DNA from: a virus | DNA: 37,924 nucleotides | IMG/VR virus record: IMGVR_UViG_3300032217_000122 | Coordinates: 1-37,924 of that record | Strand: one strand, 5' to 3' | Shown: positions 21,077 to 31,341 of the stretch, in pieces | How positions within the stretch are numbered: the first letter of the stretch is position 1 | How the letters are laid out: each line of letters begins with the position of its first letter | The notes under the pieces: model-generated | What the model was told of the DNA's origin: nothing | What the model saw: the letters and a program-made list of their open reading frames with translations, nothing else | Database searches by the model: none | Translations under genes and position numbers: made by a program

Positions 21077-21287
21077 TTCTGTTCTCCATCTCAATTAGTA
21101 ATTCAATGTAATGTTTTGCTTTTTCTAGGTCTGCAATACCATTCTTTGCTCTCCAACGGCTCACATATTTGATTACGTTGCCCTCAAAGTACCCTATGGC
21201 GTTAGCATAGATGTACTCCACTGGTTGTATAGGCAGGTCTTTGTAATGGGTTCCTGCAATCTGTTTGGTTAGGCTAGACTCAGACAT
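21009..21287 (-). CDS. DUF3310 family protein
   Basis: 92 residues. The DUF3310 core is plain: HYKDLPIQPVEYIYANAIGY, then VIKYVSRWRAKNGIADLEKA and KHYIELLIEME. These small helical proteins are common in phage replication regions (T7-type nucleotide-kinase-like annotations exist) without proven function. The C-terminal 25 residues beyond the usual end (ETDRNQSVRVRKD) overlap the VRR-NUC gene. Its start overlaps the polymerase end by 19 bp. Confidence 0.85.
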   Translation of the reverse strand: MSESSLTKQIAGTHYKDLPIQPVEYIYANAIGYFEGNVIKYVSRWRAKNGIADLEKAKHYIELLIEMENRNARETDRNQSVRVRKDQECTGI

Positions 21288-23104
21288 AATTTTTCCACTT
21301 CGTTGATGTAGTATTCATAATCAATTGGTAACGTAGCATCGGCAATGTTGTTACATACCTGCACGTTCCAACCACTCTCTACGCCTATCTTGCGCCACAC
21401 TGTAGGCTTCTTGGCTAGTGGAGGCATCCACTTGTTCAATGGCTTACCACCCTTAGCTATGTAGTACCTAGTGGTGTTCTGCACACGGTCAGTACCCCAT
21501 TCCAAGTAACTACTTCTAGGTACTTTGGTGCGTAGCATGAAGTCCATCTTGTCTTGCCACTGTTCCACTGTTTGACGGATAGGTGCACCATCTACCAGCA
21601 CCTTTTCGGCTACCTTTGGTATTACTAATGCACCTGCGTTCTGGTGCCATTGGGTTTTCCACTCATAAGCACCTTTACGCTTGGTGTTACCGTCCTCATA
21701 AACTGCAATGTAGTTGTTCACATCACGAATCATCATGGACTTGTAAACGGCTTCTTCTAGGTTCAATCCGGTGCGCTCTTGCCATGCTGCTCTTGCCAAG
21801 TCAACCAACACCTTGTGGTTACGTGGCACCTTAACAGTTAGACCATCGGTGTTTACTTGGATTAGCTGAAGGCCTGGTATGGTCATTAAACCTTCTGCAA
21901 GTAAACATAGTAGTAGTTGACCATTAAGCGTAATGCTCATGGTAAACAACGGGTCATAGAACACACTGAACTGATTGTTGCTATCACCATACACACCATT
22001 CAGTGCCAGCTTCAACATGGCGCTTTCGGCTGACTTTTTGGAGTATCCTTTACGTTGTTCGAATAAATGCTTGTAGATTGCGACAAATTGCTTACCCAAG
22101 TGGGCTGGATAAAACCCATTGGTGATTGCAAGGTTTGGGTAGTAGCTGGTAACGTCCAGATCAATGATGACATTTTCGTCATCGGATTCGACCACAACTG
22201 ATTCCATTGAGCCATGAATACCTCCAAGACCAAACACAAAAGTAAAACCATTGATAACCGCAGTCAAATCTTCAAACACACCTTTAGTTTCTGTAATCGA
22301 CTGACCTTTAAGCCAGTTCAGCACACGATTGAACTCAGGTTGATCAAAACGTATCCAAGGCAGAATAGCGTCCTTCAAGTGAATTACTGGTCGTTTAGTT
22401 TGTCTTGGTGTACGTCCTTTACTGGAAAAGTCGTAACAGGCAACCCCTGATTCTTCCAGCTTCATAATGAAAAACTCTTTACCAATCTTGGTATCGTTGT
22501 AGTTAATCCAGTCTTTACCAGGGTACATCACATTAAGTTTTTCGCGAAAACTTAACATGTCAAGCGTGTGGTGGTAAAACAGTTTAGTTTGCTTAACATC
22601 GTGTTGGTTGTACTGCTTCAACACTTCACCCTGCTCACGGGTCAATGTAGTACCTACCTTGTATGGCAAGTCCTCAATGGTGTCAGAACGCATATTGAAC
22701 TCTAACGACTTCAAACTGGTGGTACGTGCCTTGTTATCAAAGTGGTGGATCTTGTACAGGTCAACTTGATCCACCATGCGGTCAGTTGGATTGACCATGT
22801 GCGCCCACTTGTCGTTGTCTTGCGCGTCAATGATGGCTTGTGCTTTTTGATACAGGGTGTATGCGTCAGACTTACCCATACGCGCTAGTGTGTGCAGTAC
22901 AGGGTAATCAAAGCCAATGTTGTTAAAACCAACCATGCGCCCACTGGTCTGTTGCAGATATGACAAAAAGCTTATGATCTCCCGCGAGTCGTTACGCCAG
23001 TCACTGATCTCAAACAACCACGATAGGGGTGATTCTGCGTGTTCTACTGCCAGTGTGAATACGTTTGGGAACGTTTCAATATCATAGATGTAGTCGTTAC
23101 TCAT
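21269..23104 (-). CDS. Family B DNA polymerase with 3'-5' exonuclease
   Basis: 611 residues. Exonuclease motifs: YDIET (7-11, Exo I), NNIGFD (61-66, Exo II), YNQHD (165-169, Exo III). Polymerase motif A is DLDVTSYYP (315-323), motif B KLALNGVYG (365-373), motif C NTDG (418-421). A and B are only about 50 residues apart, so there is no room for the TPR1 insertion of protein-primed phi29-type enzymes. It is a compact replicative polymerase, probably using the phage primase (26307) and perhaps the clamp-like protein (30167). SD: GAAGG upstream. Confidence 0.9.
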   Translation of the reverse strand: MSNDYIYDIETFPNVFTLAVEHAESPLSWLFEISDWRNDSREIISFLSYLQQTSGRMVGFNNIGFDYPVLHTLARMGKSDAYTLYQKAQAIIDAQDNDKWAHMVNPTDRMVDQVDLYKIHHFDNKARTTSLKSLEFNMRSDTIEDLPYKVGTTLTREQGEVLKQYNQHDVKQTKLFYHHTLDMLSFREKLNVMYPGKDWINYNDTKIGKEFFIMKLEESGVACYDFSSKGRTPRQTKRPVIHLKDAILPWIRFDQPEFNRVLNWLKGQSITETKGVFEDLTAVINGFTFVFGLGGIHGSMESVVVESDDENVIIDLDVTSYYPNLAITNGFYPAHLGKQFVAIYKHLFEQRKGYSKKSAESAMLKLALNGVYGDSNNQFSVFYDPLFTMSITLNGQLLLCLLAEGLMTIPGLQLIQVNTDGLTVKVPRNHKVLVDLARAAWQERTGLNLEEAVYKSMMIRDVNNYIAVYEDGNTKRKGAYEWKTQWHQNAGALVIPKVAEKVLVDGAPIRQTVEQWQDKMDFMLRTKVPRSSYLEWGTDRVQNTTRYYIAKGGKPLNKWMPPLAKKPTVWRKIGVESGWNVQVCNNIADATLPIDYEYYINEVEKLCLSLA

Positions 23105-23146: not shown

Positions 23147-23815
23147 TTAACCGAAGAACGATGGCAGACCAGCAGGTGCGCCGAATGGTGCAGCAGGCAT
23201 AGCAGGTGCTGCGGGTGCAAAGCCTGGTGCAGCATTTACAGCACCAAACAGTGCAGACGCATCAGCACTACCTTCACCAAACGCTGTATCGTCAGAGGCA
23301 AATTGAATAGCAATCAAGTCGCAACGGATACCACGACCATGTTTGTTATCTTGAATCCAAGGCTTAACAGCAGCATTGACACGGCAACCACCATACATCT
23401 TACGTGCAAGTGCTTGATATGCCATTGTGTTAGCAGGATCAACGGCTTGACCATTATCCTGAATCATCTGTGGTGCGCTATCACGACCAGCAGTAAGAAA
23501 CACATTACCAGCGTAACCATCATAAGGTTGAAAGTTTTTACGATTAACCTTTTCCTCACCTTTACCAAAGCAACGGGTCTTACGATCAGCAAGAATCATA
23601 GCCATAACAGGCTGTGCGTGTTCTTTCCACTTCTCCATTGCCAGTGCACCATAACGAGCCATGAACTGCTGAAAACCAGCGTGTTCTTGCGGCATGATGA
23701 ACTCGCAGTTGTAAGAGATACGGGTTGCACCAGTGGTTTCGTTTACTTGCTTTTGTGGTTCAGCAATGTGTGGGAAAGACAAACGAACATTTGACAGAAA
23801 AATAATATCGGACAT
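23147..23815 (-). CDS. Enc34-type single-stranded DNA-binding protein (DUF2815)
   Basis: 222 residues, ATG behind AAAGG. The opening SDIIFLSNVRLSFPHIAEPQ and the core RISYNCEFIMP, CFGKGEEKV, YDGYAGNVFLTAGRD, KMYGGCRVNAAV identify the Enc34_ssb/DUF2815 family. The C terminus is an Ala/Pro/Gly-rich flexible tail ending PSFFG, rather than an acidic tip. It coats ssDNA at the replication fork. It sits with the Cas4/AddB-like nuclease upstream and polymerase downstream, the common phage arrangement. Confidence 0.9.
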   Translation of the reverse strand: MSDIIFLSNVRLSFPHIAEPQKQVNETTGATRISYNCEFIMPQEHAGFQQFMARYGALAMEKWKEHAQPVMAMILADRKTRCFGKGEEKVNRKNFQPYDGYAGNVFLTAGRDSAPQMIQDNGQAVDPANTMAYQALARKMYGGCRVNAAVKPWIQDNKHGRGIRCDLIAIQFASDDTAFGEGSADASALFGAVNAAPGFAPAAPAMPAAPFGAPAGLPSFFG

Positions 23816-29790: not shown

Positions 29791-30084
29791 TTAATCTTTA
29801 ATGTTCATTACTTCACGTATACCGCGCATATAAGCATCAATCAATTCCGACAATTGACGCGCGGGAATATGTCCCATGTTGAATATGTCAGATTGTCCGG
29901 TTGATTCGTGCATCTTATGCAATGCAAACCCACCATATTGAGAACTAATTAAATACACACCTTCAACACCTCCAATAATTTTATCGTTCTCATCGTAGGT
30001 GTAAACCTCATCATCAAGTCCAAAAAGCCGGTTAAGGTTGCTTACCTGAGCATTTAAAAATGATCTAGTTATACGTTGTGCCAT
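29791..30084 (-). CDS. Small phage protein of unknown function
   Basis: 97 residues from ATG 30084, with AAGGAC upstream inside a structured leader. An in-frame start at 30120 would begin inside that leader and is rejected. Sequence: AQRITRSFLNAQVSNLNRLF, then EGVYLISSQYGGFALHKMHE and ARQLSELIDAYMRGIREVM. A mixed alpha/beta protein with no known motif. Its leader (30085-30166) is a structural twin of that of the clamp-like gene, suggesting common control. Confidence 0.65.
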   Translation of the reverse strand: MAQRITRSFLNAQVSNLNRLFGLDDEVYTYDENDKIIGGVEGVYLISSQYGGFALHKMHESTGQSDIFNMGHIPARQLSELIDAYMRGIREVMNIKD

Positions 30085-30166
30085 GATAGGGTTGTCCTTA
30101 CAGTTACAGTTACGATGCAAAGCGCATCCATCAAGCCACTACATTACAATGGCTTGATAGTGTGCT
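30085..30166 (-). promoter_or_regulatory. Structured leader B, upstream of the 97-residue protein
   Basis: Reading leftward: stem ATCAAGCCA/TGGCTTGAT (30158-30150 with 30138-30130, 11-nt loop), one G, stem GATGC-GCTTT-GCATC (30128-30114), then GTAACT GTAACT GTAAGG ending in the Shine-Dalgarno, and CTATC before ATG. The order and several sequence blocks equal those of leader A (30725-30813). Could act as mRNA structure, processing site or protein-binding element. Confidence 0.7.
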
Positions 30167-30724
30167 TTAGTACCAAGTTGGAGCGCTTACAACCTCATCA
30201 TACCCGCGCAGGGGCATAACGTAAGCGTGAAAATCATCATTAATTTTGCAATACCCTATACTGTTACCGTTTTGCTGGATTAAGTATGCGAACTTAGTTG
30301 GTCTTATCAACTGCCCGGCTTTATCTACCATTGCATGATAATCCGGATGATAGTGAGATTTTTCACCGGTTTGTTGTGGCGTAACAACCCGGCGCCAGTC
30401 GGGAAATTTGCCATCCAATAGTGGCACGGTTATCCGGCCATTGGAGCTATTCAAGGTGCATTGTGTATTATCTACCTGCACAACATCAATTGATCCCTTG
30501 GCACCCTTTACAACGTTTTCGAGATGCTCACGCGGTACGGTAAAGCTAGCAGGCTCTGCACTGTCACGGTCTAACCTAGCAACGGCCAAACAATGGCCGT
30601 TTGTGGCCACTGCCACGGTGCCAGTGGCAGACTGTTCAAAGTGCACGCCTTTTAAATAGTAGCGTGTTTCCTTTTTAGCTGCGAAGAGCAGGAGGGCTTT
30701 TAGTGTGGTTACATTGATTAACAT
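30167..30724 (-). CDS. Beta-sliding-clamp-like protein (single central-type domain plus extension)
   Basis: 185 residues, about half of DnaN (366). Residues about 8-113 follow the central domain of bacterial beta clamps: LFAAKKETRYYLKGVHFEQS, VATNGHCLAVARLD (VATDGHRLA), FTVPREHLENVVKG, LLDGKFPDWRRVV (LIDGKFPDY.RVIP). The last 70 residues do not match a clamp domain obviously. A ring could form from more copies than in DnaN, or the protein could only bind clamp partners. It is led by structured leader A. Confidence 0.75.
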   Translation of the reverse strand: MLINVTTLKALLLFAAKKETRYYLKGVHFEQSATGTVAVATNGHCLAVARLDRDSAEPASFTVPREHLENVVKGAKGSIDVVQVDNTQCTLNSSNGRITVPLLDGKFPDWRRVVTPQQTGEKSHYHPDYHAMVDKAGQLIRPTKFAYLIQQNGNSIGYCKINDDFHAYVMPLRGYDEVVSAPTWY

Positions 30725-30813
30725 GATAGATTACCTTTACGAGTTACGGGTTACGGGTTACTTGATGCTAAGACAGCATCCACAAGGCCACGCAATGGCC
30801 TTGTAGGGTTGTC
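30725..30813 (-). promoter_or_regulatory. Structured leader A, upstream of the clamp-like gene
   Basis: Reading leftward: stem ACAAGGCCA-TTGCG-TGGCCTTGT (30804-30782), one G, stem GATGCT-GTCTT-AGCATC (30780-30764), then four 7-mers GTAACCC GTAACCC GTAACTC GTAAAGG, the last carrying the Shine-Dalgarno, then CTATC and ATG. No T-run follows the hairpins, so they are not plain terminators. See leader B. Confidence 0.75.
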
Positions 30814-30894
30814 TCACATAGTGGCAAAGTACAAAGCCAACGGCAGGCCAATAATTGCGGCCAGTGTTGCAGCTTCGAGTAGTTGCTGGATCAT
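30814..30894 (-). CDS. Tiny membrane peptide (26 residues)
   Basis: ATG 30894 overlaps the TGA of the upstream 43-residue gene (ATGA) and ends at TGA 30814-30816. Nearly the whole peptide is one hydrophobic helix (QLLEAATLAAIIGLPLALYF). Tight coupling to another small membrane gene under a good promoter supports it. It may form a two-component membrane system with that gene. No family recognised. Confidence 0.6.
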   Translation of the reverse strand: MIQQLLEAATLAAIIGLPLALYFATM

Positions 30895-31082: not shown

Positions 31083-31130
31083 TATAAACATCAAAATAAT
31101 TACATCCTTTTTTAACCGATGTTTCCATGA

Positions 31131-31141
31131 TTGTGACACAA
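31131..31141. promoter_or_regulatory. Candidate operator TTGTG-A-CACAA
   Basis: A perfect 5+1+5 palindrome of the same type as at 26178 and 17650, with a partial copy TTGTGACAA at 31152-31160 and an inverted TGTCACA at 31261. It is about 50 bp upstream of the leftward promoter. Confidence 0.5.
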
Positions 31142-31273
31142 GTGTATTTTTTTGTGACAACTTTGCCTTTTGTTCTGGGTGGTCGATTTTGAGAATCTGG
31201 GAAAAAAAGACGTTTTAGAAAATGGTATTTTTAAAAGGGTCGCCCGCGCAAAGGCGAAGTTGTCACACTGGCG

Positions 31274-31341
31274 TTTATCCGAATTTGCCCGATGTTTTAA
31301 TGGTGTATTTATCCGAATTTGCCCGATGTTTCAATGGTGCA
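31274..31341 (+). repeat. 34-bp tandem direct repeat
   Basis: Two abutting copies (31274-31307 and 31308-31341) differing at two positions; each starts TTTATCCGAATTTGCCCGAT. Such repeats beside terminase genes are reminiscent of terminase binding or origin iterons. Confidence 0.8.

What the first reader, a model, noticed from the sequence alone, without database searches (positions are those of the whole stretch)
30085..30813. Two intergenic leaders share one multi-part architecture (twin leaders A and B)
Seen directly: before the clamp-like gene (30725-30813) and before the 97-residue gene (30085-30166) the minus strand shows the same order: a 9-bp-stem hairpin ending in G, a GATGC...GCATC hairpin, two or three tandem GTAAC-type repeats running into a last GTAA(A)GG unit that is the Shine-Dalgarno, then CTATC-ATG. 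Loops and stems differ with compensating changes (ACAAGGCCA/TGGCCTTGT versus ATCAAGCCA/TGGCTTGAT), which suggests selection on structure. GACAACCCTA also occurs in both, in different places. The shared design implies joint control of two unrelated genes by an RNA element, a protein or a processing event. Inference: translation control, because the repeats merge with the ribosome site.
Basis: partly seen in the sequence, partly recalled or inferred. Interest (0 to 1): 0.75.

Follow-up and report, generated by a model that had tools for sequence, protein, structure and literature searches.

The report
Portable twin-hairpin gene junction in phages
Two gaps between genes of an uncultured lake-type phage carry the same two-hairpin RNA element plus a repeated ribosome-binding site, and relatives keep this element at such gaps while the genes on either side of it are swapped, so it looks like a ready-made connector that lets the phage plug new early genes into an operon.

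Summary
Leaders B (30725-30813) and A (30085-30166), minus strand, are homologous and fill the whole gap between two genes. Each has a 9-bp hairpin directly next to a GATGC/GCATC hairpin, then tandem GTAAC units fused to the Shine-Dalgarno sequence. A covariance model built from nine copies finds two copies in the window and 1-4 in each of about seven related phage contigs. On the 20-row alignment, 11 of 14 pairs change on both sides and 98.9% of cells are paired; sliding the pairing by 1-3 columns leaves 25-41%.

The element is wider than twin leaders. It recurs in uncultured podoviruses related to DSL-LC05, with quite different stem sequences and before unrelated genes. Stem 1 starts about 7 nt after the upstream stop codon. 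The hairpins and the repeat-type ribosome-binding site also occur separately. Clamp gene and leader can be 94-95% and 85-89% identical between two phages while the next gene is unrelated.

Best reading: a portable intercistronic RNA junction, that is, an insulating or stabilising twin hairpin plus an independent ribosome-binding site. It is not in Rfam. The biochemical mechanism is inferred; a protein operator like that of T4 gene 32 is the main rival.

The parts
30725..30813 (-). Leader B: whole intergenic junction between the 26-aa ORF and the clamp gene
   Evidence: cmsearch R1 30808-30734, 77.1 bits; sequence
30782..30804 (-). B stem 1: ACAAGGCCA (30804-30796), loop TTGCG, TGGCCTTGT (30790-30782); the flanking CT..GG can extend the stem by 1-2 pairs
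30764..30780 (-). B stem 2: GATGC TGTCTTA GCATC, separated from stem 1 by one G (30781)
30734..30761 (-). B repeat-type ribosome-binding site: GTAACCC GTAACCC GTAACTC GTAAAGG (Shine-Dalgarno)
30805..30813 (-). B 5' spacer GACAACCCT between stop codon and stem 1, conserved in L003, L004, L005 and L081
30085..30166 (-). Leader A: whole intergenic junction between the clamp gene and the 97-aa gene
   Evidence: cmsearch R1 30162-30095, 69 bits; sequence
30130..30158 (-). A stem 1: ATCAAGCCA (30158-30150), loop TTGTAATGTAG, TGGCTTGAT (30138-30130)
30114..30128 (-). A stem 2: GATGC GCTTT GCATC, separated from stem 1 by one G (30129)
30096..30113 (-). A repeat-type ribosome-binding site: GTAACT GTAACT GTAAGG (Shine-Dalgarno)
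30167..30724 (-). Sliding-clamp-like gene, 185 aa (Pfam DNA_pol3_beta_2), downstream of B and upstream of A
29791..30084 (-). 97-aa protein of unknown family, downstream of A
30814..30894 (-). 26-aa ORF MIQQLLEAATLAAIIGLPLALYFATM ending 9 nt before the 9-bp stem 1 of B (7 nt before the CT..GG extension)
   Evidence: homologue in L005
31055..31082 (-). Promoter-like TTTACA-16-TACAAT with TG extension, upstream of the operon, so leaders A and B would be internal
   Evidence: consensus match only; the region is not enriched over shuffles

Best explanation
A and B are two copies of a portable intercistronic RNA junction used in the early operon of a group of uncultured freshwater podoviruses related to DSL-LC05. 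The junction has two modules. (1) Two abutting hairpins begin about 7 nt after the stop codon of the upstream gene. (2) A ribosome-binding site made of tandem (G/C)UAAC units ends in UAAAGG or UAAGG before the next AUG.

Proposed mechanism: the twin hairpin separates two cistrons on one mRNA. It blocks uncontrolled run-on or re-initiation by the terminating ribosome and shields the RNA ends left by decay. The repeat module gives the next gene its own initiation site. Because everything needed lies between one stop codon and the next start codon, genes can be swapped at either end without disturbing their neighbours, and repeated copies give homology for such exchange.

Shown here: homology, conserved sense-strand structure, separable modules, fixed spacing to the stop codon, gene replacement at the junction ends, and a gene lying between the hairpins and a second repeat block. 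Inferred: the insulating, stabilising and initiation effects, and recombination between copies as the route of spread.
For: Structure: model R1; 11 of 14 pairs with both-side changes, 0 of 500 shuffles reach the observed values, slid pairings 25-41% paired against 98.9% (the first nine copies alone: 5 pairs). Among pairs that are not Watson-Crick in junction stems chosen without favouring either type: G-U 9, A-C 1, other 0, as expected for RNA of the mRNA strand.

Anchoring: stem 1 starts 5-11 nt after the upstream stop in 27 of 28 copies listed, median 7; stem 2 to ATG varies 19-39 nt; reading frame is not conserved.

Two modules: repeat-type sites without hairpins at three DSL-LC05 genes, in G004 (L258) and in L003; hairpins without GTAAC repeats in L279, L143 and L184.

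Portability: clamp 94-95% and leader 85-89% identical while the next gene is unrelated, e.g. L193 against L177, L189, L192, L198. L003 carries an extra gene between the hairpins/repeats and a second repeat block, absent from L004 and L005; its stop codon lies inside the repeat. The 97-aa gene follows the clamp in the window and precedes it in L081, each behind a leader. Related hairpins follow non-clamp genes in L293, L299 and L301.
Against: No expression, probing or decay data exist, and every genome with the element is a metagenome assembly. The repeat region is not predicted to be more open than shuffled sequence, and the Shine-Dalgarno is only about half unpaired (0.27-0.58). Repeats without hairpins in DSL-LC05 show that initiation does not need the hairpins. 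Conserved position after a stop codon fits RNA processing or an operator as well as insulation. The G-U excess rests on few events that are not independent; counting four non-Watson-Crick pairs in copies missed by that search (read) makes it about 11 to 3.
Confidence: 0.45

Rival explanations
1. Translational operator: a phage early protein (for example the Gp2.5-like ssDNA-binding protein at 23147-23815 or the DNA polymerase at 21269-23104) binds the stacked hairpins and spreads along the UAAC repeats over the ribosome-binding site, turning down several early genes together, as T4 gp32 does on its own mRNA or RegA on many.
For: The layout resembles the T4 gene 32 operator: coaxial helices followed by UUAA(A) repeats overlapping the ribosome-binding site (PMC3014915). 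RB69 RegA selects AAUAAUAAUAA and a stop codon UAA inside a ribosome-binding site is discussed as part of its target; the T4 and RB69 gene 43 operator loop is UAAC. The phage encodes polymerase and Gp2.5-like protein.
Against: Stem sequences differ completely between subgroups, so recognition would have to be by shape. Hairpins and repeats occur separately. No conserved loop sequence. No pseudoknot was seen in the folds. The regulated genes differ from phage to phage.
Confidence: 0.25
2. RNA processing site: the twin hairpin is cut by host RNase III or flanked by RNase E cuts, releasing separate mRNAs whose ends are protected by the hairpins.
For: Stable 9-14 bp stems that abut and may stack, between cistrons and just after stop codons. 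Intercistronic RNase E processing near a stop codon and upstream of a structured leader is known for T4 gene 32.
Against: Stems are short for RNase III and no cleavage data exist; the fixed 7-nt spacing to the stop codon is not explained by RNase III.
Confidence: 0.14
3. Transcription attenuator or descendant of an intrinsic terminator between early genes.
For: A sister group has one G+C-rich hairpin followed by a run of T at the same place behind the clamp gene, directly before the next ribosome-binding site, e.g. L148, L153, L162.
Against: No T-run follows either hairpin in the twin elements; the terminator scan finds nothing at A or B.
Confidence: 0.08
4. DNA-level element: the repeats and inverted repeats serve recombination (or are a small mobile repeat) and have no RNA role.
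For: Gene replacement and an inserted gene have their ends at the element; two copies in L003 are identical over the hairpins, repeats and tail.
Against: Orientation is fixed relative to the genes, stop-codon spacing is tight, G-U is preferred over A-C on the mRNA strand, and the element is fused to a ribosome-binding site.
Confidence: 0.06

Closest known systems
PeSL motifs of T4-type phages (Comeau, Arbiol, Krisch 2014; paper not held, known from its title in a reference list, and from memory)
   Same: Repeated composite regulatory element with a stem-loop at junctions where small genes are shuffled
   Different: PeSLs combine an early promoter with a terminator; A and B have neither a promoter-like match nor a T-run, have two abutting hairpins, and carry a repeat-type ribosome-binding site
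T4 gene 32 translational operator (PMC3014915)
   Same: Stacked helices upstream, then UAA-containing repeats running into the ribosome-binding site
   Different: Two ordinary hairpins rather than a pseudoknot; several unrelated genes instead of the ssDNA-binding-protein gene; no known binding protein
RegA targets of T4 and RB69 (PMC3014915)
   Same: One signal class at the ribosome-binding sites of many early genes; UAA triplets in the RB69 selection
   Different: RegA sites lack structure; no RegA homologue was looked for or found here
Intercistronic stabilising hairpins (REP in malE-malF, papA; from memory)
   Same: Hairpin just after a stop codon inside an operon
   Different: Here paired with a repeated ribosome-binding site and conserved across gene replacement
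Intrinsic terminator
   Same: Stable G+C-containing hairpin after a stop codon
   Different: No run of T after either hairpin

Membership tests
PeSL (T4-type mobile regulatory cassette) | Several copies per genome at junctions of shuffled genes | tested here: met
PeSL (T4-type mobile regulatory cassette) | Contains an early promoter | tested here: not met
   No promoter-like match inside 30725-30813 or 30085-30166 (consensus scan for sigma-70 only)
PeSL (T4-type mobile regulatory cassette) | Stem-loop followed by a T-run | tested here: not met
T4 gene 32 operator | Pseudoknot nucleation site | tested here: inconclusive
   Folds give two hairpins in B and one long composite hairpin as the minimum-energy fold of A; pseudoknots were not searched by a dedicated program
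T4 gene 32 operator | UAA-containing repeats overlapping the ribosome-binding site | tested here: met
T4 gene 32 operator | Lies before the ssDNA-binding-protein gene and binds its product | tested here: not met
   Leaders precede clamp and small genes; the only confident R1 hits in the window are A and B. Binding itself not testable
Intrinsic terminator | Hairpin followed by a T-run | tested here: not met
Any Rfam 15 family | Score above the gathering threshold | tested here: not met
RNase III processing site | Cleavage by RNase III in vivo or in vitro | not testable with these tools
   Needs RNA work
Recoding (frameshift or readthrough) stimulator | Conserved frame relation between upstream and downstream gene | tested here: not met
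   Intergenic length mod 3 takes 0, 1 and 2, with in-frame stops in most copies

The most novel reading that the evidence does not exclude
A new family of phage RNA that recruits one phage or host protein by the shape of two stacked hairpins and coordinates whatever early gene is plugged in behind it: a general-purpose, gene-independent regulatory socket that phages exchange together with accessory genes.
Probability: 0.25. Interest if true: 0.75.

Novelty: new variant of a known kind. Interest (0 to 1): 0.5.

Why it matters
It shows in sequence how a phage can exchange small early genes one at a time without breaking the neighbours: the junction RNA is kept and the genes on either side change. 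The slot behind the clamp gene in these phages holds different accessory genes (DUF7249, NinX-like and unknowns), so the junction is also a marker for finding such genes. The element is not in Rfam and gives a testable case of RNA structure conserved across junctions whose flanking genes are replaced.

Tried and rejected
Recoding: rejected, frame not conserved. Intrinsic terminator: rejected, no T-run. Integron attC-like site: considered from the TAAC motifs and dropped on reading, since the expected pair of conserved ends around the hairpin is not there; not tested by a program. Shared GACAACCCTA as a functional motif in both: rejected, the two copies sit in different parts of the element.

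Unusually open repeat region: tested and not supported. The wide first pattern scan returned mostly chance matches; L061, L081 and L099 were the true ones. The first pattern for the sister leaders found nothing because I had dropped a shared G; the corrected one found 14 contigs. Host search by the clamp in bacterial genomes gave only distant hits.

The element was not found in the isolate phages scanned: with the clamp, BcepC6B and Bcep781 (10-kb regions only), VLCpiS13c, 64795_sal3 and EP23; relatives named for DSL-LC05, Rhodoferax phage P26218, Thalassomonas phage BA3 and Vibrio phage VvAW1, and two spring-water genomes. MAFFT misaligned several loops, so the model was built from nine cleanly aligned copies.

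Full report
WHAT IS THERE. The window is an IMG/VR virus record. On the minus strand a promoter-like site (31082-31055) precedes a 43-aa ORF, a 26-aa ORF, leader B, the clamp gene (Pfam DNA_pol3_beta_2), leader A and a 97-aa gene. Leaders B and A fill the two gaps completely. Both consist of a 9-bp hairpin, one G, a GATGC/GCATC hairpin and GTAAC units that end in the Shine-Dalgarno. Shuffles of either leader never gave such a pair of hairpins (0 of 5000 each) and the two leaders align far better than shuffles. The minimum-energy fold of B shows both hairpins; that of A extends stem 1 into a longer composite hairpin, so for A the second hairpin rests on conservation rather than on the energy model.

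RELATIVES. The clamp search found L002 (nearly identical), L003, L004 and L005 at 80-84% identity; a pattern scan added L061, L081 and L099. Printing these regions showed not two but up to four copies per contig, before different genes. A covariance model from nine copies finds all of them with strong scores: window two, L003 three plus a repeat-only site, L004 four, L005 three, L081 two, L061 one, L099 one; L279 was added later. On the 20-row alignment 98.9% of cells pair, 11 of 14 pairs have changes on both sides, and every shuffle and slid control is far below. That alignment was fitted to the structure and leans towards it; the nine-copy alignment, made without structure, gives the same answer for helix 1 (5 of 9 pairs with both-side changes), while helix 2 does not vary there.

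WIDER FAMILY. A profile of the clamp reached 80 further contigs. In many of them the gap before or after the clamp holds the same layout with quite different stems, such as CCTGATGCCGGCTCTGCCGGTATCGGG running into a GCGCGCATTCGCGTC hairpin. In 645 kb of these loci the finder gave 32 hits against 4 in one set of shuffled sequence. In 26 twin-type clamp junctions, which I picked by eye, all have a strong first stem against 8% of shuffles, and 24 start 5-11 nt after the stop codon against 10%; because the set was picked, this describes it rather than tests it. By protein comparison several of these contigs (G004, G009, G010, G012, L188, L192) and phage DSL-LC05 belong with the window phage. DSL-LC05 comes from a lake metagenome, was proposed as family 'Luchaoviridae', and is predicted to infect Enterobacterales (PMC10611076).

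TWO MODULES. Stem 1 starts 5-11 nt after the upstream stop codon in 27 of 28 copies listed, median 7, whereas the distance from stem 2 to ATG varies from 19 to 39 nt. For leader B the script took a longer ORF further upstream; read by eye, the 26-aa ORF ends 7 nt before the extended stem. The repeat-type ribosome-binding site occurs without hairpins in DSL-LC05 (three genes), in L258 and in L003. Hairpins occur without GTAAC repeats in L279, L143 and L184.

RNA, NOT DNA. When the best stem at each junction was chosen without favouring any kind of mismatch, the non-Watson-Crick pairs in the twin junctions were G-U nine times, A-C once. G-U pairs only in the RNA of the mRNA strand. Four further cases in copies missed by that search (read) bring the count to about 11 to 3. 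The events are few and not independent.

PORTABILITY. Between phages whose clamp genes are 94-95% identical and whose leaders are 85-89% identical, the next gene can be unrelated (about 20% identity, random level): L193 against L177, L189, L192, L198. L195 and L199 have a NinX-like gene between the leader and the DUF7249 gene that directly follows the leader elsewhere. In L003 a whole gene lies between the hairpins with their repeats and a second repeat block, and its stop codon is formed by the repeat; L004 and L005 lack it. In L081 the order of the clamp and the 97-aa homologue is reversed, each still behind a leader. L293, L299 and L301 carry related hairpins behind genes that are not clamps.

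MECHANISM. I favour an intercistronic insulator or stabiliser plus an independent ribosome-binding site, kept as a ready-made junction. The 7-nt spacing puts the base of stem 1 close to the mRNA entry of a ribosome stopped at the upstream stop codon (general knowledge of ribosome footprints). This would limit run-on and coupling, and hairpins next to a stop codon also protect RNA ends. None of this has been measured. The main rival is a protein operator of the T4 gene 32 kind, whose layout of stacked helices followed by UUAA(A) repeats is strikingly similar (PMC3014915); the phage has a Gp2.5-like protein and a polymerase that could play that part. Processing by RNase III or RNase E is a further possibility. 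Folding does not show the repeat region to be more open than shuffled sequence, which weakens any argument from openness.

KNOWN OR NEW. No Rfam family matches. The nearest concept is the PeSL of T4-type phages, which I could not read; by its title it is a promoter-terminator composite, and A and B show neither part. The structure is therefore a new RNA family by sequence and layout, and a new variant of the known idea of a regulatory element repeated at shuffled gene junctions.

LIMITS. All genomes with the element are metagenome assemblies and no isolate scanned has it, so host and expression are unknown. Copies are related by descent and by copying within genomes, so counts are not independent events.

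Noticed in passing
window 31104-31341: Gap between the early operon and the terminase genes holds repeats of about 26-34 nt (ATCCGAATTTGCCCGATGTTTTAATG type) and an 18-nt inverted repeat (31153-31170 / 31250-31267), near the promoter-like site: operator- or origin-like.
   Followed up: no
window 30167-30724: The best PHROGs family for the clamp (phrog_3007) is labelled RusA-like Holliday junction resolvase although Pfam gives DNA polymerase III beta; many public annotations carry the resolvase name.
   Followed up: partly
L166, L172, L195, L170, L003 (gene behind the clamp): The slot behind the clamp is hypervariable among relatives: DUF7249, NinX-like and several unknown genes; a TreK-like gene sits behind a further leader in L003.
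   Followed up: partly
L148, L153, L162 just after the clamp stop codon: A sister group has a single G+C-rich hairpin followed by T5-6 directly in front of the next ribosome-binding site, which looks like an intrinsic terminator built into a junction.
   Followed up: no
L278 (DSL-LC05) 33995, 34162, 34712: Three genes share the ribosome-binding site AACCCGTAACCGTAAAGGAACC without hairpins; at two of them the upstream stop codon lies inside the repeat.
   Followed up: partly
L005 upstream of the clamp: An extra small ORF lies between the 26-aa ORF and the leader, so insertion also happens on the upstream side of the junction.
   Followed up: no
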